The notes beneath the pieces are model-generated. The model ran no database searches and was not told the DNA's origin. It saw nothing but the letters and a program-made list of their open reading frames with translations. 64,000 nucleotides of DNA from a virus, in IMG/VR virus record IMGVR_UViG_3300044731_000789, positions 1 to 64,000 of that record; one strand, written 5' to 3'. The position numbers and the translations under genes are program-made. The stretch's first letter is position 1. Each line of letters opens with the position of its first letter. Below are positions 4,660-52,115 of this stretch, piece by piece.

Positions 4660-4687
4660 AAAAAAGGGGGCTTCGGCCCCTTTTTTA
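4660..4687. terminator. Bidirectional intrinsic terminator
   Basis: A GGGGC/GCCCC stem with a TTCG loop, flanked by A6 on the left and T6 on the right, so it can work in both directions. It ends gp23 transcription (plus) and the endonuclease gene (minus). Confidence 0.9.
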
Positions 4688-6472
4688 TTTCTTTCGCCAT
4701 TCTAATTTTAATTTACCGCAATCATATATTCTATATATTCTGTTATAAATTGCTAATTCATGTTCTGTCATTGTTTCATCATATTTTAGTTTTGGATCAT
4801 TTTTAAATCTGTTTTTTCTAAATCCGAACTTATGTTTCCTTTCATCGTTATGGACATATGTATAATCGACAGGCAATCTATCAACAATATAGAAACCATT
4901 TTCTAAATAAGATTCTCCAGTAAACATTTGCAAATCAACAAATGTGTGGATTATATCTAATTTAGAATTTTTCACCAATTTGCTCAACCCACCAACCACT
5001 TTGCATGATGTGGTATACCTAGTTAAAATGTTGCCATTGAACAACATTGCTGCAACAATTTCTCCATTATACTCAAGACAAACATTATATGAATGTACCG
5101 CATACCCTTGGATATGGTATTTCACAAAGAACTTAGTCAAAAATTCTTTCCCAACATTATATAAAACGTTGCATTTCCTGGCAAAAATGCTTATATCATC
5201 ACATTTACCAATAGAATTTTTGATAAATCTTTTAACTATATCAAACCTATCAACAATATCATCTTCATATATATGAATCAATCTTATACCAAGATTTGAA
5301 CACATATCTGTTTTCATTTTGTGATATGTTGATAATTTGTATACTTCTGAATGCCAATATACACCATTTATTTCAAACGCAATATTTTTTTCTGGTATAA
5401 TAATATCTAATTCATATGGAGATATTATTTGTTTAGTGCTATATTCATATGTAACATCTAATGAATCTAAATAATCCCTAATTTTATATTCATATGTAGA
5501 AACTGTATTATCGATTCGTATTTCTATACCATGTCCAGTCAAATATCTGGAAACACATGAGTCAGTACATTTTAAAATAGCGCAAATATCATATGTGGAT
5601 AATTTATTTGTCACATATTGCTCATACATCCAGTCTCTATTATTTAATAAATCCCATGCAAATTTTCCAAGTCTTGTTTCAGAACCTGATCTAACTGGTA
5701 TATTATGTTTATTCAAATAATTTCTAACTGTTCTTTGTGAGCAACCTAGTTCCAAAGCAATTGCGTCCATAGATACCCAATTCACACAATATGCTTTATA
5801 CAACCACAAAAAACTTGATAATTTTTCAATAGCATTTTTGCTTAATTGGTTTTCGGTTCCATTTCTTAACGGAATACCATATTGTTTTATATATTTCAGA
5901 ACAATACCTGTACCACATCCACATATAGAACTTATATCAGATGATGAATATTGTTCCAAAATATATTTCTCATATAACCAATCATATTGTTCCAATGTAT
6001 TTGATAAATCAACTTGACAACAATTATATTGAATTTCTTTTATGCCATGTTTTGAAATCCATTTAGATATAGTTGGGTGAGAAACTCCTAATTCATTTGC
6101 TATATTTTCTTTGGATTTCTTATTTACAATCCTTTGGGTATATAACCAATCTTTATCTTTAAGTTTATCCATAATATTTTTGTTCAATCTTGGTGTAGAT
6201 TGTCTACACAAATCTGAACAAAATCTATTAAACCCAAGTTTGTTGTTTCTCGCGTTTACTGATGTATTACCACCACAATGTTCGCATTTTGGTATATCAT
6301 GAATATTATTTTTGACACAATATATTCTTAGTGAATAAGTTGGTGTTAAACTATTGAGAAATGATGTTTCATCCAACAATTTTGAAACAATTTCTTGTTT
6401 AGACTGTGATAGACTTATTGCAGATTTATTCTCACATAAGTCTATCACATATTGACTATATTTTTTATCCAT
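4685..6472 (-). CDS. Vsr-fold (EDxHD) homing endonuclease with repeated HTH motifs
   Basis: 595 aa. The N-terminus has a zinc-finger-like PKCEHCGG...FCSDLCRQ segment (residues 58-90). There follow four repeats of a 'W(L/M)Y..Y......S...I' helix-turn-helix unit (for example LGVSHPTISKWISKHGI), likely DNA recognition modules. The nuclease part near residues 340-410 contains 'ELDIIIPEKNIAFEINGVYWHSE', shown here in two blocks as ELDIIIPEKN and IAFEINGVYWHSE. This fits the Vsr-like EDxHD family to which I-Bth0305I belongs. It is free-standing, convergent with gp23 and ends inside the shared terminator. Capsid-adjacent sites are common homes for such genes. I infer cleavage of gp23-region DNA in phages lacking it. 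Confidence 0.85.
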   Translation of the reverse strand: MDKKYSQYVIDLCENKSAISLSQSKQEIVSKLLDETSFLNSLTPTYSLRIYCVKNNIHDIPKCEHCGGNTSVNARNNKLGFNRFCSDLCRQSTPRLNKNIMDKLKDKDWLYTQRIVNKKSKENIANELGVSHPTISKWISKHGIKEIQYNCCQVDLSNTLEQYDWLYEKYILEQYSSSDISSICGCGTGIVLKYIKQYGIPLRNGTENQLSKNAIEKLSSFLWLYKAYCVNWVSMDAIALELGCSQRTVRNYLNKHNIPVRSGSETRLGKFAWDLLNNRDWMYEQYVTNKLSTYDICAILKCTDSCVSRYLTGHGIEIRIDNTVSTYEYKIRDYLDSLDVTYEYSTKQIISPYELDIIIPEKNIAFEINGVYWHSEVYKLSTYHKMKTDMCSNLGIRLIHIYEDDIVDRFDIVKRFIKNSIGKCDDISIFARKCNVLYNVGKEFLTKFFVKYHIQGYAVHSYNVCLEYNGEIVAAMLFNGNILTRYTTSCKVVGGLSKLVKNSKLDIIHTFVDLQMFTGESYLENGFYIVDRLPVDYTYVHNDERKHKFGFRKNRFKNDPKLKYDETMTEHELAIYNRIYRIYDCGKLKLEWRKK

Positions 6473-17388: not shown

Positions 17389-17742
17389 ATGGATAAGAAT
17401 GAAACAATTGTTTTAAATATTCATTTAAAAAATGGTGTTCAATTGATTGGAGAAATGGAATATTCTGATGAACATTCTACAGGAATTCTTAGACCAATTG
17501 AAATCAGAAAAAGACCGTCATTCGGTAAAAATGGTGTATATGAAGTAATTACAACTTCTCCATTTTTATTAATGTCTGATTCATTTTTGTGTTCTATTCC
17601 ATCTTCAGAAATATTGGTACGAGGATGGTTACATGAAGATTTGTATGAAATGTACACAAAGTTAGCTTCAAAATATTATATGGATGTTTCTGAAATTATG
17701 GAAACAGATTTGCCCGACGAAGATAAAGGAACAATGCATTGA
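17389..17742 (+). CDS. Sm-like-fold protein of unknown function
   Basis: 117 aa. Residues 5-35 (IVLNIHLKNGVQLIGEMEYS) resemble the strand-turn pattern of small Sm/LSm-like beta barrels found in several T4-type phages. The C-terminus is acidic. Its stop overlaps the TTG start of gp55, so the two are probably coupled. A role in RNA or transcription is only a guess from context. Confidence 0.7.
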   Translation: MDKNETIVLNIHLKNGVQLIGEMEYSDEHSTGILRPIEIRKRPSFGKNGVYEVITTSPFLLMSDSFLCSIPSSEILVRGWLHEDLYEMYTKLASKYYMDVSEIMETDLPDEDKGTMH

Positions 17743-18386
17743 TAGCAGAAATTCAAAATGCCAAAAAAGCCAAAGACATTTATGTAGACAATGAAAGATT
17801 TGCTGCAGAATATGATAAATGGATAACAGAAGTTCACCATGCTCGTGCAAATGGTCTAAAAGACCCAAGAATTACAGAATATCTTGGGGAATGTATTTTA
17901 AAAATTTGTACAAGATTAACCTATATGCCATCATTTTACAACTATAGTTGGAAAAATGAATTTATTACAAATGCTATAGAAAATTGTATTAAATATTTTG
18001 ATCGATATGATAAAAATGCCATTTCAAAAAGAACTGGTAAAAAAACTGCTGGACCGTTTTCATATTTTACAACTATTGCATATTGGGCGTTTGTTCGCAC
18101 AATTTTGATAGAGAAAAAAGAATTGAAGAAAAAGCAGAAATATATTTCTCAATTGTCTTCAGTGATTACAGAAATTAGAGAATATGATTCTGAAGAATTT
18201 GACAATGAATATATAAATTATTTGAAACGGATGTTGGATGAAGATTTTTCGGGTGACGAAAAAAATGGTGAAAAGTTGAAAAAAGATGTTGACAATTTGG
18301 AAGAAGATGATATACTGGATATCATTGAATTGGACAAAGATTTGGCACTGGAAGTGTTGGAATATGATGAAGATGAAATTTTTTAG
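17739..18386 (+). CDS. 55: Late-transcription sigma factor (gp55-like)
   Basis: 215 aa. The segment 'YSWKNEFITNAIENCIKYFD', with the following 'FSYFTTIAYWAFVRTILIEKK', matches the region-2-like core of T4 gp55, which binds host RNA polymerase and reads TATAAATA late promoters. As in gp55 there is no region 4. The acidic C-terminal tail ending LALEVLEYDEDEIF resembles the clamp-binding end of gp55. The start is TTG 17739, overlapping the previous stop with AAAGGA 8 bases upstream; no nearby ATG is in frame. Confidence 0.9.
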   Translation: MIAEIQNAKKAKDIYVDNERFAAEYDKWITEVHHARANGLKDPRITEYLGECILKICTRLTYMPSFYNYSWKNEFITNAIENCIKYFDRYDKNAISKRTGKKTAGPFSYFTTIAYWAFVRTILIEKKELKKKQKYISQLSSVITEIREYDSEEFDNEYINYLKRMLDEDFSGDEKNGEKLKKDVDNLEEDDILDIIELDKDLALEVLEYDEDEIF

Positions 18387-22864: not shown

Positions 22865-23110
22865 ATGTCGTATATCGAACAGATGGTAGCAAATAAAATT
22901 ATTGATAGGGCGAATTTTGGGCTATCAAAATATGGGGTTGGAATGGACAGGACAGATATGTCTGTGTTACAATTCTTAAAAATGGCACAGGAAGAAAGTA
23001 TGGATTTTTGTGTATATTTGGAAAGATTAATTGTAGAAGAAGAATTGAGGGCACAAGACCAAAAGCAACAATCAAATATTGAACAAGATGATGGAGAAAC
23101 AACTGAATGA
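22865..23110 (+). CDS. Conserved T4-type phage protein of unknown function
   Basis: 81 aa. 'KYGVGMDRTDMSVLQFLKMA' and the following 'EESMDFCVYLERLI' resemble a short helical protein family common in T4-like phages, distantly like the helical bundle of MazG-type proteins. Start taken at ATG 22865. The stop overlaps the gp45 start by 4 bases. Confidence 0.65.
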   Translation: MSYIEQMVANKIIDRANFGLSKYGVGMDRTDMSVLQFLKMAQEESMDFCVYLERLIVEEELRAQDQKQQSNIEQDDGETTE

Positions 23111-23778
23111 AATTGTCAAAAGAAACTTTAGAAATATTGAAAAACTTTTCAACTATTAATGAAAACATCTGTATCAAGCCTGGAAACATTTTGACAACAA
23201 TTTCTGTTGGAAACAATATTATTGCAGAAGCGGTGATTGATGAATCATTTGACAAAGAATTTTGCATCTACAATTTAATTGAATGGTTAAATGTATATAA
23301 TGTTACAGATAATGGTGACATTTATATTATGGACAAATTCATGGACATTTCTTGGGGAAATAGTAAAATTAAGTATGGATTTGCAGACAAAGATTCAATT
23401 TATTATACCGAGAAGGTTCCAAAATTTCATCATAATGGTGGAAGTTTACCAGACCAAGTTATCGAAGTAGAAGTTGCATCCAGTACTATTAAAACTGCAT
23501 CTGTTTTAAAATCCCCCCATATGGGAATTGTATCCAATGGATCAAATGTAAAATTGAAAACATTTGATTATAATACACCATCATCAAATTCATATGAACT
23601 AGATTTGGATGTAAACCATGACAAGAAATTTGCAGCAATTTTGGACATCAATAGTTTGAAAATTCTCCCTGGAACATATAAGGTGAAAATTTCATCTGCT
23701 GGAATTACATGTTGGACAAATTTGGATAGACCTGTTACATATTATATCACATTGGATACAGTATCCAAATTTGAGTAA
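23107..23778 (+). CDS. 45: DNA polymerase sliding clamp gp45
   Basis: 223 aa (T4 gp45: 228 aa). N-terminal 'LSKETLEILKNFSTINENIC' and the repeated beta-strand/helix pattern match the trimeric clamp. It tethers gp43 and, with gp55 and gp33, activates late promoters. Gene order gp45-gp44-gp62-regA-gp43 follows T4, interrupted here by a tRNA-like sequence and a ferredoxin gene. Confidence 0.93.
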   Translation: MKLSKETLEILKNFSTINENICIKPGNILTTISVGNNIIAEAVIDESFDKEFCIYNLIEWLNVYNVTDNGDIYIMDKFMDISWGNSKIKYGFADKDSIYYTEKVPKFHHNGGSLPDQVIEVEVASSTIKTASVLKSPHMGIVSNGSNVKLKTFDYNTPSSNSYELDLDVNHDKKFAAILDINSLKILPGTYKVKISSAGITCWTNLDRPVTYYITLDTVSKFE

Positions 23779-31633: not shown

Positions 31634-31733
31634 CAAATTGACATGTCATCCATACTGGTTTCACCAAGCAACGAAGTTGCGAAGCCAGAGCCAATTATGT
31701 CTATGTCCGTTAATTTCCCAGTTCCCCTGGGTA
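31634..31733 (-). ncRNA. omegaRNA scaffold region of the tnpB element
   Basis: Read on the minus strand, this overlaps the last eight tnpB codons and runs about 75 bases past the stop. In known TnpB systems the guide RNA is made from this end and its guide part is set by the DNA just beyond the element, here below about 31634. It agrees with 2929-3028 at about 85 of 100 positions, showing the conserved part. Confidence 0.65.
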
Positions 31734-32864
31734 TTTGTTCGGTATTCCTAGATCAGATAAGCCTCTGGCTAGAATATTTTTAGCAGCATTTAAGTCTCGG
31801 TCATGGAAAGTATTGCAGGAACTGCAAGTCCATTCCCGAATATGTAAAGACATTGGTGTTTCATGTCTATGACCACAAACATTGCAGTCTCTGCTAGTAT
31901 AATTGGGGTTGACCTTCAAGAATGTTCTTCCGTACCATTTGGATTTATATTCCAATAACCGGAAGAAATCAGACCATGAAGCATCAGCTATAGATCGAGA
32001 TAATCTTTTGTTTTTCAAAAGATTCTTGATTTTTAAGTCTTCTACGATAATAACATCGTTGGATTTTACTATCTTATAAGATAATTTGTGTAGAAAGTCC
32101 GAACGGGAGTTCGATACTTTCTGGTAGATCAGAGCAACTGCTTTACGTTTCTTTTCTCGTCTATTAGATTCTTTTTTGGAACGAGACAAAGCACGTTGGG
32201 AACGTTTAAGTGCTTTTAGTTTTTTCTTTAGAAATCGTGGATTCTCAACAGAATTTCCGTTGGAATCATAAAGAAAGACTTTTAAACCAGCATCAATACC
32301 AATAATATTATTGGTGGCTGGAAATAAATCTACTTGACATTCTACAGAAAACGATATATGATACTTACCAGTGGCATCCAATGAAACAGTTGCCATTTTG
32401 GGTATCCCAGGAAATTCATGGGATACTTTAATTTTAACAGCACCTAGTTTTGGTAGTTTAAGAACTCCGTCCTTAAGGACAATATCCTGCATACGCACGG
32501 ATTTCTTGTTATACTTAGATTTGAATGTTGGTAAACCGGCTTTATTGGAACCTTTTGGTTTCTTTAAATCCCTAAAGAAATTAGAATACGCACTATTTAG
32601 GTCTAATAGTGATTGCCGTAGGCAAGTGCTAGGAACGTCAGATAACCAGTTAAAGTCTTCTTGTTTCTTTAAGATCGTAAGATCAGCAGATAACTGGTTG
32701 TTTGTTAGAGTGATACCTTGTTCTTTATAGGTATCACGTTTTAGTTTAAGATAATGGTTATAGACAAACCTTGAGCAACCAAACATTTTGTTTAGTAGTA
32801 TCTTTTGTTGTTGGTTAGGATAAAACCTAACCTTGAAAGATTTGTTTATAGTATTTTTGTTCAT
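31710..32864 (-). CDS. tnpB: TnpB RNA-guided endonuclease
   Basis: 384 aa, normal length. RuvC-like active site intact: Asp in 'NIIGIDAGLKVFL', Glu in 'VIIVEDLKIKNLL', Asp in 'HDRDLNAAKNIL'. Zinc ribbon CNVCGHRH...CSSCNTF lies between the last two. N-terminal OrfB-type 'FKVRFYPNQQQKILLNKMFG' domain is present. TnpB cuts DNA matching the omegaRNA guide next to a short target motif. No frameshift is seen, so it is probably active. Confidence 0.93.
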   Translation of the reverse strand: MNKNTINKSFKVRFYPNQQQKILLNKMFGCSRFVYNHYLKLKRDTYKEQGITLTNNQLSADLTILKKQEDFNWLSDVPSTCLRQSLLDLNSAYSNFFRDLKKPKGSNKAGLPTFKSKYNKKSVRMQDIVLKDGVLKLPKLGAVKIKVSHEFPGIPKMATVSLDATGKYHISFSVECQVDLFPATNNIIGIDAGLKVFLYDSNGNSVENPRFLKKKLKALKRSQRALSRSKKESNRREKKRKAVALIYQKVSNSRSDFLHKLSYKIVKSNDVIIVEDLKIKNLLKNKRLSRSIADASWSDFFRLLEYKSKWYGRTFLKVNPNYTSRDCNVCGHRHETPMSLHIREWTCSSCNTFHDRDLNAAKNILARGLSDLGIPNKYPGELGN

Positions 32865-39840: not shown

Positions 39841-40731
39841 TCAATCTAATCTTTTGCATTTCCATTTTTCATGGTGCAGTGATCTACCACATGCAACATT
39901 ACTCATACTACGCTGTGACAACCCATTTCCTTTACAAAACTGAGTTAAGTTTTTAATCACAAAAACCTCCCCATCAGGGGCTGTAATTTCCCAGGTTTTT
40001 GCTTTTGAATTAGCTATTTTATTGCGTATTTCTTTTGATAGGTTTTTACCAAAATTATGATTGAGATCACCCATTTTGGATTCTGACATTTTTCGTTTCG
40101 CTTCATCTGTATGCTTAACGCCATACATAGAGGATAATTCCCCACATTTTCCATACATTGGATTATTTTCCCCCGTATTAAGTTGACTTAATAATTGTTT
40201 TGTTTGGTCACTATGCTTGAATGTAGTCATGAAAATTTTTATTTTTTCTACATGTTCATCGGATAATTTCCTACCGTAATTGGGTGATAATTCCCCACGT
40301 TTTCCATACATTGGATTATTTTCCCCTATTCTTGATAGACTATATGATTTTCTCCGATCTTCCGAAAATAATGATTTCAATCGATCCTTTTCTTCATCGG
40401 TGTAAACCTTTCCGATCATGTTAAATTGTTTTATAGAATTTTTGTGGTAAGACTTATTAAGTTTTAACGCATTGTCCCAATTTTCAAATATCAATTCTTG
40501 TTCAAAATTGTAACACTCGATTGGGTCAACAAACATTGCAACAATATGCCAATCAAATTCATCAAAAATTGGTTTTACAATTTTGGAACTTGTTCTGTAT
40601 TTAATCAAATCTTGTTCTGGGGGAAGTTTTATAGATTTTGCGGTTCTGGAACCAATATAAAATTGTCCAGTTTCACGATGGATGCCCATATAGACATATG
40701 GCAATACTTTGGTTGACCGATAAATAGTCAT
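39841..40731 (-). CDS. GIY-YIG homing endonuclease with NUMOD3 repeats
   Basis: 296 aa from ATG 40731, supported by AGGAGAAT just upstream on the minus strand. The N-terminal nuclease part has 'PYVYMGIHRETGQFYIGSRT' in place of GIY...YIG. The middle has three NUMOD3-type DNA-binding repeats (GENNPMYGKRGELSPNYGRK type) and the end an NUMOD1-like helix-turn-helix (LTQFCKGNGLSQRSMSN). Free-standing, Seg-like; it sits convergent to small genes and upstream of a late structural gene. Confidence 0.88.
   Translation of the reverse strand: MTIYRSTKVLPYVYMGIHRETGQFYIGSRTAKSIKLPPEQDLIKYRTSSKIVKPIFDEFDWHIVAMFVDPIECYNFEQELIFENWDNALKLNKSYHKNSIKQFNMIGKVYTDEEKDRLKSLFSEDRRKSYSLSRIGENNPMYGKRGELSPNYGRKLSDEHVEKIKIFMTTFKHSDQTKQLLSQLNTGENNPMYGKCGELSSMYGVKHTDEAKRKMSESKMGDLNHNFGKNLSKEIRNKIANSKAKTWEITAPDGEVFVIKNLTQFCKGNGLSQRSMSNVACGRSLHHEKWKCKRLD
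40133..40326. repeat. Two 41-base direct repeats within the GIY-YIG gene
   Basis: Bases 40133-40173 and 40286-40326 differ at about one position. They encode two NUMOD3 copies (GENNPMYGK...GELS). Near identity at DNA level suggests a recent duplication. Confidence 0.7.
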
Positions 40732-40819
40732 GCTGATTCTCCTTGGAAGAGTTAGAGCTTGTGGATGGTGGGACATCGTGACAAGCATCAATTTAAACAT
40801 TTATTACAAGTATTATTTA

Positions 40820-40827
40820 TATAAATA
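40820..40827 (+). promoter_or_regulatory. Late promoter TATAAATA
   Basis: Exact match, 32 bases before the structural gene at 40859, followed by a GGGGAAAA ribosome site. Confidence 0.75.
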
Positions 40828-47537: not shown

Positions 47538-48542
47538 ATGGAAGAATTGCCAAGATTATTACAACCACAAGATACATATGTTGTGGAATATCCACAAGCA
47601 GTAGAGGCAGCATTAGAACAATTTCATATAATTTGGAGTCCAGATGAACCAGATGTGGAAAAGGATTTGCATCAAATAAAAACTGATTTTACTGAGGCAG
47701 AATATCATGGAGTAGTTTCTACTCTAAAGTTGTTTACATTATATGAGAGAAAGGTTGGCGAAGATTATTGGGCAGGATTTGTATCTAAAATTTTCAAACG
47801 TCCTGATATTATAAGAATGGCACAAACTTATGCATTTATAGAAACAGCCATTCATGCACCATTTTATAACAGACTTAATGAAGTACTTGGTTTAGATAAT
47901 GAAGAATTTTATTCAAGTTATTTGGATGATCCAATTTTGAAAAATAGAATGGATTGGATTGGAAGAAAAACTATTGTTCCTGACCCATCAAATGTTATAA
48001 AAATATTAGAATCCTTGGCAGTATTTTCTATGATAGAAGGGGCAATTTTATATTCAAATTTTGCATTTCTAAAACATTTTCAAGCAGATGGAAAAAATAA
48101 GTTAACAAATGTTTGTGCTGGGATTGATTTTTCATTAAAGGACGAAAACATACATTCTCAGGCTGGGGCATGGCTATATAGAACATTGAAAGATGAATAC
48201 TTGACTCTATACCCAGAAAAAATTAATTTAATACGCTCATTAGAAAATGATATAACAGAAACTGGTAAAGTTGTTGTAGAGCATGAAACCATAATTATCC
48301 ATAAAATATTTGAAAAGGGTAAAATTTCAGGTATAACTGATACAAAAATGATAAATTTTGTGCAATCTAGGGTAGATATGTGCTTAGATAATTTGGACAT
48401 TTCTCCAATATTTAAACCTAGTTATAACCCAATTGCTAAAACATTTTATAACAATATCAATGGATCAAAGATGCACGATTTCTTTGCACGACAAGGGAAC
48501 GAATACAATAGAAAATGGGTTAAATCTAAATTTATTTGGTAA
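47538..48542 (+). CDS. nrdB: Ribonucleotide reductase small subunit NrdB
   Basis: 334 aa. Di-iron site residues occur in 'KTDFTEAEYHGVVSTLKLFT', 'YAFIETAIHAPFYN', 'FSMIEGAILY' and 'SLKDENIHSQAGAW'. Generates the radical for NrdA in making deoxyribonucleotides. Lies before nrdA, the reverse of the common nrdA-nrdB order; a GGAGAAATG ribosome site precedes it. Confidence 0.94.
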   Translation: MEELPRLLQPQDTYVVEYPQAVEAALEQFHIIWSPDEPDVEKDLHQIKTDFTEAEYHGVVSTLKLFTLYERKVGEDYWAGFVSKIFKRPDIIRMAQTYAFIETAIHAPFYNRLNEVLGLDNEEFYSSYLDDPILKNRMDWIGRKTIVPDPSNVIKILESLAVFSMIEGAILYSNFAFLKHFQADGKNKLTNVCAGIDFSLKDENIHSQAGAWLYRTLKDEYLTLYPEKINLIRSLENDITETGKVVVEHETIIIHKIFEKGKISGITDTKMINFVQSRVDMCLDNLDISPIFKPSYNPIAKTFYNNINGSKMHDFFARQGNEYNRKWVKSKFIW

Positions 48543-48547
48543 AATAT

Positions 48548-49666
48548 ATGTCAGACATTTACGAAGAATTAAGCAAAGAAAGAAAAAATTTACAAGAACA
48601 AGGGAAATTACCAGATTGGGTAACAACTATATCATGGCAAATGTTAAAGGAAAAATATCTGCGACCAGAATGGCCAGATTTATTGTCAACATATATCAGA
48701 ATTTCTACCCATGCTTCAACCTATACAGATAACCCATCATATTGGCAACCAAAATTTTTTGATGTTATGTGGAATGGTTGGCTGTCATTATCGACACCAG
48801 TATTAGCAAATATGGGTACTGGAACTAATTGCCCAGTAAGTTGTTCTGGTGGAGTGATTGGTGATTCTGTATACGATTTTTATGATATGCAAGTTGAAAC
48901 CGCACTTTTATCAAAAAATGGATTCGGTACATCTGCATATTTGGGCGATATTAGACCAAGGGGGGCACCTATAAATGGATTGAAAGGTGGTGCTAGTGGT
49001 GTATTACCAGTATTCAAAGATTATATACAGTTATCAAAAGATATATCACAAGGCAATAGTCGAAAAGGAGCCTGGGCGGGATATATTGAAATCGACCATC
49101 CAGATTTTTATGAGCTAGTTCAATATATCAAAAAATTTCCAGATGATGCTAATATTGGTTGGATAATAACAAATAAATTTATAGATAGATTGGATAATGC
49201 TGATTCCGATGCTATTGATAGATATCAGGAAGCATTGTTATTAAAAATGTTGACTGGTAAAGGATATTTCTTGTTTATTGATAGGGTTAATGACGTTAAT
49301 CCAAAAATGTATAAAGATAAAGGATATTCCGTTAAAGCTTCAAATTTGTGTGTGTCTGGTGATACAGTGGTTGAAATTAGATATGACGATATTGAGCTAA
49401 AAGTCATGATAAAGGAAATTGGTAATATACTTAAAAATTATGATAATATAGAAGTTAAATCATTTAATGAAAATACACAACAAGTAGAGTGGAAACCAAT
49501 TACAGATTTCAATTTAACAAAGAAAAAAGCAAGGGTGTTGAAAATAATTGATGAAAAATCTGGGAGATATATTAAGTGTACACCATGTCATTTAATATAC
49601 ACTACCAACAGAGGATATGTTAGAGCAGATCAGTTAAATGAACTCGATACGTTAAATATTATATAA
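48548..49666 (+). CDS. nrdA: NrdA N-terminal part fused to N-intein
   Basis: 372 aa. Residues 1-267 are the N-terminal part of class I ribonucleotide reductase large subunit (LSTPVLANMGTGTNCPVSCS; 'KNGFGTSAYLGDIRPRGAPI'). It lacks the ATP-cone of E. coli NrdA. At 49349 the sequence SNL is followed by Cys and 105 residues of N-intein: block A CVSGDTVVEI, block B 'KCTPCHLIYTTNRGYVRADQ'. The stop at 49664 ends the intein early. The rest is supplied by the gene at 50681, so splicing must be in trans. Confidence 0.93.
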   Translation: MSDIYEELSKERKNLQEQGKLPDWVTTISWQMLKEKYLRPEWPDLLSTYIRISTHASTYTDNPSYWQPKFFDVMWNGWLSLSTPVLANMGTGTNCPVSCSGGVIGDSVYDFYDMQVETALLSKNGFGTSAYLGDIRPRGAPINGLKGGASGVLPVFKDYIQLSKDISQGNSRKGAWAGYIEIDHPDFYELVQYIKKFPDDANIGWIITNKFIDRLDNADSDAIDRYQEALLLKMLTGKGYFLFIDRVNDVNPKMYKDKGYSVKASNLCVSGDTVVEIRYDDIELKVMIKEIGNILKNYDNIEVKSFNENTQQVEWKPITDFNLTKKKARVLKIIDEKSGRYIKCTPCHLIYTTNRGYVRADQLNELDTLNII

Positions 49667-49672
49667 TTCTTT

Positions 49673-49728
49673 GTGGTGAAGTTATGTTAAATATAAATAG
49701 TAATGTATTTAACATAACTGGAACCACT
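49673..49728 (+). promoter_or_regulatory. Hairpin that hides the endonuclease ribosome site
   Basis: A 14-bp perfect stem (49680-49693 with 49706-49719), plus an outer GTGGT/ACCAC (49673-49677 with 49723-49727), closes right before ATG 49729. The putative ribosome site GGA (49720-49722) lies in the stem bulge. The loop and left arm hold a late promoter. Long early transcripts would fold and block translation; late transcripts, starting near 49706, lack the left arm. Confidence 0.75.
49692..49699 (+). promoter_or_regulatory. Late promoter TATAAATA inside the hairpin
   Basis: Exact late promoter element spanning the end of the left arm and the loop of the hairpin at 49673-49728. Predicted start near 49706, the first base of the right arm. 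Confidence 0.75.
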
Positions 49729-50694
49729 ATGAATTACTGCAAAATATACACCAATTTTATGGAATATGTAACAAACACTTCTCCATTTGAGAGAATGGTT
49801 GGACGGAATAAAAATGATTTTAGAAAAGATTATGACAAATTATACACAGAAAGCCATCACATATTACCAAAATCCCTTGGTGGTACAGATGATCCAACAA
49901 ATTTAGTGGTGTTGTTGCCAGAGGAACATCTATTCATCCATGCATTGAGATATAAAGCATTTAATACCCCTCAAGATTTTATTGCAGTTAGATTAATAAT
50001 CAATGGTATGAATACAAATTCTAGGTTTGGAGTGGTGCCTGACAATGTTAATAAGAAAATATTGTCAACATATGCCTGGATGAAACAAAATTCTGCCACT
50101 TTCAGATATGAACATGGATGGCAGACTGAGGATGGTCGAAGAAGAATATCTGAGGCCAGAAAGAATACAATGCCTGTTAAATGTGCAATAACTGGGGAGA
50201 TGGTTGGAACTGTACCTACTAACCACCCAAAGGTTATTTCTGGAGATTGGGTTCACCATTCTAAAGGGAAACATACATATAAACATATTTTAACTGGCGA
50301 GAAAATATATTGCAACACCAATGATGATAGATTGAATAGTGGAGATTGGACATCTACGTGGATCGATGTGGCTGGGGAATTAAACCCACGATTTAGCGGT
50401 GTGTCAGATGATGACATATTGGAATTTTATAGGAAATTAATTAGAGTCATCATAACATTATATGATGCAAAGCATGTACCAGGAATAGCATACACAAGAA
50501 AAATATGGAATGCCATATATGATAAAAAACTACCACATCTTTCTGGCGGTATTAGAAGCGGATTCAGGTTCAATGGAGACATATATGAAAACCTGTACAA
50601 AAAAATGGAATCCGAATTCAATGTCGCATATAGTATGTATAATAAAGAGACTAAAAAATTTAATATAACAGAGGTAATCAATGCTATTAATTGA
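49729..50694 (+). CDS. HNH homing endonuclease inside the fractured nrdA
   Basis: 321 aa. HNH motif near residues 42-70: 'YTESHHILPKSLGGTDDPTN', then LVVLLPEEHLFIHALRY. The C-terminal half has repeated 'SGDW' type segments and a probable DNA-binding end. Start ATG 49729 follows the regulatory hairpin; an in-frame ATG at 49684 lies within it. Its end overlaps the C-intein ATG by 14 bases, so translation of the NrdA C-part may depend on it. I infer that it cuts intein-less nrdA and so spreads the insertion. Confidence 0.88.
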   Translation: MNYCKIYTNFMEYVTNTSPFERMVGRNKNDFRKDYDKLYTESHHILPKSLGGTDDPTNLVVLLPEEHLFIHALRYKAFNTPQDFIAVRLIINGMNTNSRFGVVPDNVNKKILSTYAWMKQNSATFRYEHGWQTEDGRRRISEARKNTMPVKCAITGEMVGTVPTNHPKVISGDWVHHSKGKHTYKHILTGEKIYCNTNDDRLNSGDWTSTWIDVAGELNPRFSGVSDDDILEFYRKLIRVIITLYDAKHVPGIAYTRKIWNAIYDKKLPHLSGGIRSGFRFNGDIYENLYKKMESEFNVAYSMYNKETKKFNITEVINAIN

Positions 50695-51676
50695 AGAATT
50701 AAACGAATTAGAAGATGTTTATGACATCACCGTAGAGGATAACCATAACTTTTATGCCAACGGAATCCTTGTGCATAATTGTAACGAAATAATGCTCTCT
50801 TCCAAAGAAGACGAGACATTCACATGTATACTTTCATCAATGAATCTATCAAAATTTGATGAATGGAAACATACCGATGCAGTATTTGTTTCAACCGTTT
50901 TCCTAGATTGCGTAAATAGCGATTTTATACAAATTGCTAAAAATATCAAAGGGTTAGAAAGAGCTGTTAGGTTTGCTGAAAGACATAGGGCATTAGGTCT
51001 TGGTGTATTAGGGTTTGCAACCTATTTACAAGATCATATGATGTCATTTTCAGGTTTGGATGCTCATTATACTAATATAGAAATGTTCACACATCTTAAT
51101 GACGAATCTTTGAGAGCATCTAAATGGATGGCAAAAAATTGGGGGGAACCTGATATGTGTAAAGGATATGGGGTTAGAAATACTCATAGAATGTCATGTC
51201 CACCAACAATGTCCACAAGTATTATAGTAGGTAGTATTTCACAGGGAATTGAGCCATTTTTTGAGAATGTATATACTCAAGGTAGTGCCGCTGGAGATAT
51301 GCATAGAATAAATCCATCGCTTTTACCCATAATGAAGAAAAGAAATGTATACAATAAAAAAACTGTTACTGACATTATTAATAATAATGGTTCAGTTCAA
51401 CACGTTACTTGGTTAGATGATAATGAGAAAGAAGTGTTTAGAACTGCGTTTGAAATTCCACAGGAGGCTATACTACGTTTAGCATCAACCAGACAACCAA
51501 AGATAGATCAAGGCCAAAGCGTTAACTTATATTTTGGCGCAGATGAAGACGAGGAATATATATCACAAATCCACAAAATTGCTTTTAAAGATAAAAATAT
51601 CAAAGGGTTATACTATATAAGGTCAAAATCTGGAGTAAAGGCATCAAAAGAATCTTGTGAAAATTGTCAAGGATAA
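50681..51676 (+). CDS. nrdA: C-intein fused to NrdA C-terminal part
   Basis: 331 aa. Residues 1-33 are the C-intein (block F/G: YDITVEDNHNFYANGILVHN); the next residue is Cys at 50780-50782, followed by NEI. In NrdA the motif is N-x-C-x-E, so the first residue of this C-extein is the thiyl-radical cysteine itself. Residues 34-331 carry 'VRFAERHRALGLGVLGFATY', the radical-transfer region and a C-terminal CENC pair for re-reduction. Joined to the 267-residue N-part it gives a 565-aa enzyme. Confidence 0.93.
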   Translation: MLLIEELNELEDVYDITVEDNHNFYANGILVHNCNEIMLSSKEDETFTCILSSMNLSKFDEWKHTDAVFVSTVFLDCVNSDFIQIAKNIKGLERAVRFAERHRALGLGVLGFATYLQDHMMSFSGLDAHYTNIEMFTHLNDESLRASKWMAKNWGEPDMCKGYGVRNTHRMSCPPTMSTSIIVGSISQGIEPFFENVYTQGSAAGDMHRINPSLLPIMKKRNVYNKKTVTDIINNNGSVQHVTWLDDNEKEVFRTAFEIPQEAILRLASTRQPKIDQGQSVNLYFGADEDEEYISQIHKIAFKDKNIKGLYYIRSKSGVKASKESCENCQG

Positions 51677-51679
51677 TGC

Positions 51680-51708
51680 TTGACAATCCTGCGCCAATCC
51701 TGTAATAT
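51680..51708 (+). promoter_or_regulatory. Early sigma70 promoter
   Basis: TTGACA (51680-51685), 17-base spacer ending in TG, TAATAT (51703-51708). It lies just after nrdA and starts the next unit. Confidence 0.72.
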
Positions 51709-51758
51709 ATTACACATGGGTGGCGCAGTAATTTATAAACAAAAGTGGAGAATATTTT

Positions 51759-52115
51759 ATGAATGATGTAGTATTATTTCTATATTTTGCAGATGTTATG
51801 CCTAGTATTGGCAGAATTTTTGCTCTTTTTGCTTGGGGCACTGCAATAACATATGTTATTGAATGGGTTGCATTTGTTGTATCAGAGGGAGAATGCTGTA
51901 AACAAAAACACCATTGTTTGGTATATTTTACATTAGCATTATCTTTGATATCTGCATTTGTTCCAGATAAACACACAATTTATTTAATTGGTGCAGCAAA
52001 AGCTTCTGCCGAATTCGGCCAAGCAGTTGGGAATAGTGATATAGCACAAAAAACTATGAAAGTATTAAACCAAGAATTGGATAAAATGCTTACTCCACCA
52101 GAGGGTAAAAAATAA
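51759..52115 (+). CDS. Membrane protein of unknown function
   Basis: 118 aa. Hydrophobic segments: VVLFLYFADVMPSIGRIFAL..., 'TAITYVIEWVAFVV' and 'CLVYFTLALSLISAFVP'. The C-terminal 45 residues are helical ('GAAKASAEFGQAVGNSDIAQ'). The layout is like phage inner-membrane proteins of unknown role; a holin is possible but not supported by context. AGTGGAG before the ATG. Confidence 0.65.
   Translation: MNDVVLFLYFADVMPSIGRIFALFAWGTAITYVIEWVAFVVSEGECCKQKHHCLVYFTLALSLISAFVPDKHTIYLIGAAKASAEFGQAVGNSDIAQKTMKVLNQELDKMLTPPEGKK

What the first reader, a model, noticed from the sequence alone, without database searches (positions are those of the whole stretch)
48548..51676. nrdA fractured by a split intein at its catalytic cysteine, with a free-standing HNH gene between the halves
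Seen: the N-part ends SNL|CVSGDTVVEI... and stops at 49666; the C-part starts at ATG 50681 with 33 intein-like residues ending in HN, then Cys-Asn-Glu-Ile. Joining SNL to CNEI restores the NxCxE radical-site motif of NrdA. The +1 splicing residue is therefore the thiyl-radical cysteine, so no active enzyme exists without trans-splicing. Known: 'fractured genes' with split inteins flanking a separate endonuclease were described from environmental phage-like DNA. Inference: splicing is autocatalytic in trans and the HNH gene drives spread.
Basis: partly seen in the sequence, partly recalled or inferred. Interest (0 to 1): 0.85.

Follow-up and report, generated by a model that had tools for sequence, protein, structure and literature searches.

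The report
Split-intein nrdA with nested homing endonuclease
In this phage the gene for an essential DNA-building-block enzyme is broken in two exactly at its catalytic residue, each half carries half of a self-splicing protein that should stitch the enzyme back together, and a selfish DNA-cutting gene sits in the gap; the arrangement is real and widespread in viruses, and in relatives the whole insert can be seen to move as one unit.

Summary
nrdA is split into 48548-49666 (267-aa extein + 105-aa N-intein) and 50681-51676 (33-aa C-intein + 298-aa extein), with an HNH gene between. Both intein halves pass NCBIfam cut-offs; the joined 565 aa match one NrdA profile end to end. This is a 'fractured gene', a kind published in 2009, so it is a new member of a known kind; cultured Yersinia phage TG1 carries the same layout. 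Three additions. (1) Related viruses show an empty site, fused inteins and split inteins at the same codon; the gap holds HNH, GIY-YIG or Vsr-like nucleases, or only a 3' remnant. (2) In relatives the intein+nuclease block moves as a unit: in one pair identity jumps to 98-100% at the intein borders while flanks stay at 71-89%. Alleles lacking the nuclease show no such signature. (3) The HNH gene starts behind a hairpin holding a T4-type late promoter (TATAAATA), and this phage encodes the matching late sigma factor and clamp. Best reading: both halves are made early and spliced in trans, the nuclease is held back until late, and the block homes into intein-free nrdA. Splicing, cleavage and timing are inferred, not shown.

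The parts
48548..49348 (+). NrdA N-extein, 267 aa, ends ...KASNL
   Evidence: translation; TIGR02510 1-261; fold search top hit 6dqx, class Id RNR alpha, E 1.5e-13
49349..49666 (+). N-intein, 105 aa, starts CVSGDT, block B TPCH, then stop codon
   Evidence: TIGR01445 above cut-off; PF14890 E 3.5e-5; fused intein matches NrdJ-1 split intein 8ubs E 5e-22
49680..49719 (+). 14-bp perfect inverted repeat; RNA hairpin ahead of the HNH gene; the extended stem flanks the GGA ribosome-site candidate
   Evidence: fold -26.1 kcal/mol, z -7.65, 0 of 200 shuffles as stable
49692..49699 (+). TATAAATA, T4-type late promoter motif at the hairpin loop
   Evidence: the same motif in the same place in 9 of 14 HNH-bearing split loci
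49729..50694 (+). HNH homing endonuclease gene, 321 aa (ORF is open from ATG 49684)
   Evidence: phrog_655 homing endonuclease E 1e-27; H, N and H residues of the motif invariant in 8 homologues
50671..50674 (+). GAGG, ribosome-binding site candidate of the C-half, inside the HNH reading frame
   Evidence: SD-like tetramer at 22 of 31 C-half starts against 22% at random positions
50681..50779 (+). C-intein, 33 aa, ends ILVHN; its start overlaps the HNH stop by 14 nt
   Evidence: TIGR01443 44.9 bits, cut-off 15.6
50780..51676 (+). NrdA C-extein, 298 aa; +1 splice residue Cys is the radical-site Cys of SNLCNEI
   Evidence: TIGR02510 259-559; aligned with ASNLC[TS]EI of 6dqx and 6dqw
47538..48542 (+). 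nrdB, small subunit, directly upstream
   Evidence: PF00268 E 5e-39
17739..18386 (+). T4 gp55-type late sigma factor, needed to read TATAAATA
   Evidence: phrog_234 E 6e-39
23107..23778 (+). gp45-type sliding clamp, late-transcription co-activator in T4
   Evidence: phrog_223 E 2e-52

Best explanation
A fractured nrdA. Early operon mRNA (nrdB - nrdA-N - HNH - nrdA-C) yields both NrdA halves, because the C-half has its own ribosome site inside the 3' end of the HNH gene, while a hairpin blocks the HNH start. The 105-aa and 33-aa intein halves associate, splice themselves out and join SNL to Cys, making the 565-aa NrdA with its thiyl-radical cysteine. Late in infection the gp55-type sigma starts transcription at TATAAATA inside the hairpin; this shorter RNA lacks the 5' arm, so the HNH nuclease is made. 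It cuts intein-free nrdA of a co-infecting phage near the insertion codon, and repair copies N-intein + HNH + C-intein as one block. Shown: the anatomy, intact splice motifs, the hairpin with its motif and the late sigma gene, and block-wise movement in close relatives. Inferred: splicing, timing, the cut site, and that this HNH is active.
For: Splice residues are intact (Cys1, TPCH, terminal HN, +1 Cys) and both halves score above curated cut-offs. The closest solved intein is split intein NrdJ-1, which splices in trans in vivo (PMC7090010). Empty, fused and split alleles exist at the same codon. Yersinia phage TG1 has the same layout with a 44%-identical HNH and the same 14-nt overlap. In 50 of 57 close pairs of split loci intein dS is below both exteins (median 0.64 against 1.68 and 1.63); L075 and L073 share 98-100% identity exactly from the intein start through the nuclease to Cys+1 while flanks are 71-89%. 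HEG-free alleles L115 and L076 have intein dS like their exteins. dN/dS of intein halves is 0.02-0.17 in the pairs with usable dS. The hairpin+TATAAATA design is shared by 9 of 14 HNH loci and the phage encodes gp55- and gp45-type proteins. The hairpin / late-promoter switch is described for I-TevI and Aeh1 mobE (PMC2988022).
Against: No splicing, cleavage or transcript data. The recent block transfers are seen for GIY-YIG and Vsr-like units; no close pair carrying the window's HNH type was available (same-type pairs are identical contigs). The window's own hairpin has a weak ribosome site (GGA) placed in an internal bulge, not inside the perfect stem as in TG1. Five of 14 HNH loci lack an exact TATAAATA. 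Metagenome contigs can be chimaeric, though two breaks exactly at the intein borders would be needed. The dS pairs share loci and are not independent.
Confidence: 0.8

Rival explanations
1. Gene in pieces without ligation: the intein halves only cleave, or stay attached, and the two NrdA pieces assemble non-covalently, as in Aeromonas phage Aeh1 where mobE split nrdA.
For: Aeh1 NrdA works as two chains after a mobE insertion without splicing (PMC3653736, PMC2988022). The same nuclease superfamily is involved here.
Against: Here complete intein halves are kept under purifying selection with all ligation residues, including the +1 Cys; fused intein versions exist at the same codon.
Confidence: 0.1
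2. The nuclease merely landed in an already split, immobile intein gene and does not mobilise it; the intein is inherited vertically.
For: HEG types change at least 13 times on the NrdA tree among split alleles, so nuclease and intein are not a fixed pair. Split alleles without a nuclease persist.
Against: Block-wise low dS with breaks at the intein borders, and its absence in nuclease-free alleles. Distant pairs have extein 27% but intein 43% identity.
Confidence: 0.08
3. Decayed or mis-assembled gene: nrdA is a pseudogene, or the gap is an assembly error or an RNA intron.
For: Single metagenome record; phage nrdA genes are sometimes broken (Campylobacter phages in PMC3653736).
Against: Same split in many independent contigs and in a cultured phage; low dN/dS; Rfam finds no intron in 48400-51900.
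Confidence: 0.02

Closest known systems
Fractured genes with split inteins (Dassa et al. 2009, doi 10.1093/nar/gkp095; paper itself not held, known from citing papers and own knowledge)
   Same: Conserved DNA-metabolism enzyme broken by a split intein with a free-standing endonuclease gene between the halves; phage-like; nrdA among the reported genes (7 nrdA, 2 nrdJ according to PMC3653736).
   Different: From own knowledge, half of their loci carried a Vsr-like nuclease; here it is an HNH of the phrog_655 type. Turnover, remnants and block-wise movement are documented here for one insertion site.
Yersinia phage vB_YenM_TG1 nrdA / HNH / nrdA (KP202158, 133859-144533)
   Same: Same site, same order, 44% identical HNH, same 14-nt overlap of HNH stop and C-half start, TATAAATA in a hairpin.
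   Different: T4-type NrdA, only about 22% identical to the window in the C-extein; its RBS AAGGAG lies inside the stem. The record annotates no intein.
Aeromonas phage Aeh1 mobE in nrdA
   Same: HNH nuclease splits nrdA in a functional region; hairpin plus late promoter ahead of the nuclease (PMC2988022).
   Different: No intein there; the pieces work as two chains.
NrdJ-1 split intein (PDB 8ubs)
   Same: Closest solved intein, E 5e-22 over 120 residues; trans-splicing demonstrated (PMC7090010).
   Different: Sits in NrdJ; about 138 aa here against 151 residues in the solved chain.
T4 MobB and other Mob HNH endonucleases
   Same: Homologous HNH region, 32% identity over 46% of the protein.
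   Different: In T4 they lie between genes, not inside a split intein.

Membership tests
Fractured gene with split intein | Two ORFs that together make one conserved enzyme, no residue lost | tested here: met
   Joined 565 aa match TIGR02510 1-559/560 in one stretch; colinear with 6dqx
Fractured gene with split intein | N-intein and C-intein at the break | tested here: met
   TIGR01445 and TIGR01443 above cut-off
Fractured gene with split intein | Free-standing endonuclease gene between the halves | tested here: met
   phrog_655 E 1e-27; PF01844 E 0.001, below its cut-off
Fractured gene with split intein | Protein trans-splicing | not testable with these tools
   Residues intact; activity needs the bench
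HNH homing endonuclease | Conserved H-N-H motif | tested here: met
   HHI.P ... N ... EEH invariant in 8 homologues; best fold hits are HNH nucleases, but none at E below 0.001
HNH homing endonuclease | Cuts the empty allele and is inherited in excess | not testable with these tools
   Empty alleles exist; cleavage not shown
Mobile intein + HEG unit | Unit younger than its flanks, breaks at unit borders | tested here: inconclusive
   Met for GIY-YIG and Vsr-like relatives; for the window's HNH unit only tree disagreement
Class I NrdA, TIGR02510 | Score above curated cut-off 602 bits | tested here: not met
   571 bits over 559 of 560 positions: close relative, below the curated equivalog threshold; an uninterrupted-frame relative, L006, scores 577
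Aeh1-type gene in pieces | No intein at the break | tested here: not met
   Intein halves present
T4-type late promoter with hairpin switch | TATAAATA inside a hairpin ahead of the gene, and a gp55-type sigma | tested here: met
   use in the cell not shown

The most novel reading that the evidence does not exclude
The split intein in nrdA is a stable landing platform on which unrelated homing nucleases (HNH, GIY-YIG, Vsr-like) replace one another. Any resident nuclease moves the whole two-gene block; when the nuclease is deleted its 3' end is kept because it carries the ribosome site of the second enzyme half, so the gene stays fractured and immobile. A late-promoter hairpin separates in time the making of the enzyme from the making of the nuclease.
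Probability: 0.55. Interest if true: 0.65.

Novelty: new member of a known kind. Interest (0 to 1): 0.5.

Why it matters
Fractured genes were described from metagenomes, and how they spread or persist was left as a suggestion. The comparative set here gives a clear signature of recent block transfer of a two-part protein intron together with its nuclease, and of its arrest when the nuclease is gone. It explains why genes stay broken after the nuclease is lost, and points to a cultured phage (TG1) in which trans-splicing of an essential enzyme, homing and the late switch can be tested directly. It also supplies dozens of naturally split inteins for protein ligation work.

Tried and rejected
RNA intron: Rfam gives nothing credible in 48400-51900. 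Assembly or sequencing error: rejected by independent contigs and TG1. Direct search of the window HNH in viral contigs found nothing; an alignment with TG1 was needed. Genome-wide TATAAATA count is not above chance (9 against 12.5 expected), so the motif alone is no evidence; position is (5 of 9 sites fall outside predicted coding plus the one here, in a genome about 16% non-coding). Nucleotide conservation around the insertion codon is only slightly higher than nearby (0.66 against 0.59): no clear homing-site signal. The L004 gap fragment has no match in cultured phages but matches the L063 HNH C-terminus at E 7e-7. The HNH fold model (pLDDT 74) gives no confident match. In bacterial and archaeal genomes the search gave one nrdA with a fused intein on a short Flavobacterium MAG contig, probably viral, and otherwise unrelated inteins. 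The 2009 fractured-gene paper is not held, so which nuclease families it listed could not be checked.

Full report
Setting. The window is part of a 76,202-base IMG/VR virus record. The phage carries UvsX- and UvsY-like proteins, SbcCD-like gp46/47 relatives, a DnaB-type helicase, a gp45-type clamp and a gp55-type late sigma factor. The genes run primase - thyX - nrdB - nrdA-N - HNH - nrdA-C.

Observation. The N-part is 48548-49666: 267 aa of NrdA ending KASNL, then 105 aa starting CVSGDT and a stop. The C-part is 50681-51676: 33 aa ending ILVHN, then CNEI and 298 aa of NrdA in all. NCBIfam finds intein_Nterm from residue 268 and intein_Cterm at the start of the C-part, both above cut-off; the two exteins cover TIGR02510 positions 1-261 and 259-559. 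Joined, they give one stretch 1-559/560 at 571 bits, slightly under the curated 602, and align along nearly the whole length with solved class Id subunits 6dqx and 6dqw, where SNLCNEI falls on ASNLCTEI and ASNLCSEI. That this Cys is the radical cysteine follows from established knowledge of class I RNR (E. coli Cys439). The fused intein halves match the solved NrdJ-1 split intein best, E 5e-22.

Nuclease. The ORF 49684-50694 matches phrog_655 homing endonucleases, E 1e-27. The H, N and H of its motif are invariant in eight homologues, which start at MNY or MDY; the window's true start is probably 49729.

Relatives. Of the 39 viral contigs found with the C-part, about 30 carry nrdA without a break at the codon, the two exteins being contiguous to the base. 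A search with an alignment of C-inteins found 339 loci, of which 80 were fetched. At the same codon they show contiguous inteins of about 140-150 aa (L006, L058, L084, L103, L097), other contiguous inteins (L057; L056 with an embedded HNH-like stretch; L043/L087 of 342 aa), and split inteins whose gap holds HNH, GIY-YIG, a weakly PD-(D/E)XK/Vsr-like nuclease, or no nuclease gene. Yersinia phage TG1, a cultured T4-type phage, has nrdA / HNH / nrdA with complete intein halves, although its record annotates no intein; L130 and L131 are similar.

Turnover. On a tree of 63 C-exteins the states empty, fused and split need at least 12 changes, and nuclease types within split alleles at least 13. Nuclease-free alleles keep the 3' end of a nuclease gene: the L002-L005 gap matches the C-terminus of the L063 HNH (E 7e-7); the L101 gap matches the C-terminal tail of the GIY-YIG proteins (E 5e-5) and the L115 gap keeps similar short motifs; L116 keeps both ends with the middle deleted. 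These ends overlap the C-half start, and 22 of 31 C-half starts have an SD-like tetramer against 22% of random places. Inference: the remnant is kept because it holds the translation signal of the second enzyme half. L097 is a fused version inside a clade of split HNH alleles, so split and fused forms interconvert; the direction is not known.

Movement. Among 57 close pairs of split loci, intein dS is below both exteins in 50 (medians: N-extein 1.68, intein 0.64, C-extein 1.63). Between L100 and L108 identity rises at the intein start and falls at Cys+1. Between L075 and L073, both with the Vsr-like nuclease, identity is 98-100% from the intein start (3526) through the nuclease to Cys+1 (5064) and 71-89% outside. 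The nuclease-free L115 and L076 have intein dS close to their exteins (about 0.8-1.4 and 2.3), whereas L116 with a freshly truncated nuclease is still near its mobile kin (0.06-0.09 to L107, L112 and L113). Pairs share loci and are not independent. Across distant pairs the intein is more alike (43%) than the extein (27%). For the window itself, the intein pairs with L045 (98% support) while the NrdA tree places it with empty alleles such as L007 and L008: consistent with lateral gain, but weaker.

Switch. Ahead of the HNH start is a perfect 14-bp inverted repeat, 49680-49719, z -7.65, with TATAAATA at 49692-49699. Nine of 14 HNH-bearing split loci have TATAAATA in a hairpin at this place; chance for each is about 0.3-5% by shuffling. 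The 12-nt 5' arms average 54% pairwise identity while complementarity is kept. In T4 the same design delays I-TevI, and Aeh1 mobE has a similar one: early RNA hides the ribosome site, late RNA starting inside the hairpin frees it (PMC2988022). This phage encodes a gp55-type sigma (E 6e-39) and a gp45-type clamp (E 2e-52). In the window the ribosome site is a weak GGA in an internal bulge of the extended stem, so the repression step is less clear than in TG1.

Conclusion. A real, probably functional fractured nrdA; a new member of a known kind. What is added is the evidence for block-wise movement, nuclease turnover with remnants, and a timing switch backed by the phage's own late sigma. Trans-splicing, cleavage and timing remain to be shown at the bench.

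Noticed in passing
31710-32864 (-): TnpB / IS605 OrfB (Cas12f-like) gene inside the phage genome (PF01385 E 3e-26, PF07282 E 7e-25); no TnpA looked for.
   Followed up: no
39841-40800 (-) and 40814-40827: Second homing endonuclease with NUMOD3 motifs (phrog_314), with two divergent TATAAATA motifs in the gap to the next gene.
   Followed up: no
4685-6472 (-): 595-aa homing endonuclease-like protein with many HTH-like repeats (phrog_3339 E 1e-79) directly behind the major head protein gene.
   Followed up: no
2084, 18413, 40814, 40820, 49692, 63270: TATAAATA sites between genes, four of them 21-39 nt before a start codon: candidate T4-type late promoters in a phage with a gp55-type sigma.
   Followed up: partly
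L056, 3294-6005: Long contiguous intein with an embedded HNH-like stretch at the same nrdA codon, a different intein type from the split ones.
   Followed up: partly
L085, 3870-4999: Split nrdA whose gap holds ORFs without any Pfam match (177-aa one scanned): possibly an unknown nuclease family.
   Followed up: no
L051, 4808-5005: 65-aa ORF in the gap, alike to the L002-L005 remnant and weakly to the L063 HNH C-terminus (E 0.004): remnant or retained small gene.
   Followed up: partly
L009, L013-L015, about 190 nt after the nrdA end: HNH-like stretch directly after an uninterrupted nrdA; might be a free-standing nuclease beside an empty site.
   Followed up: no
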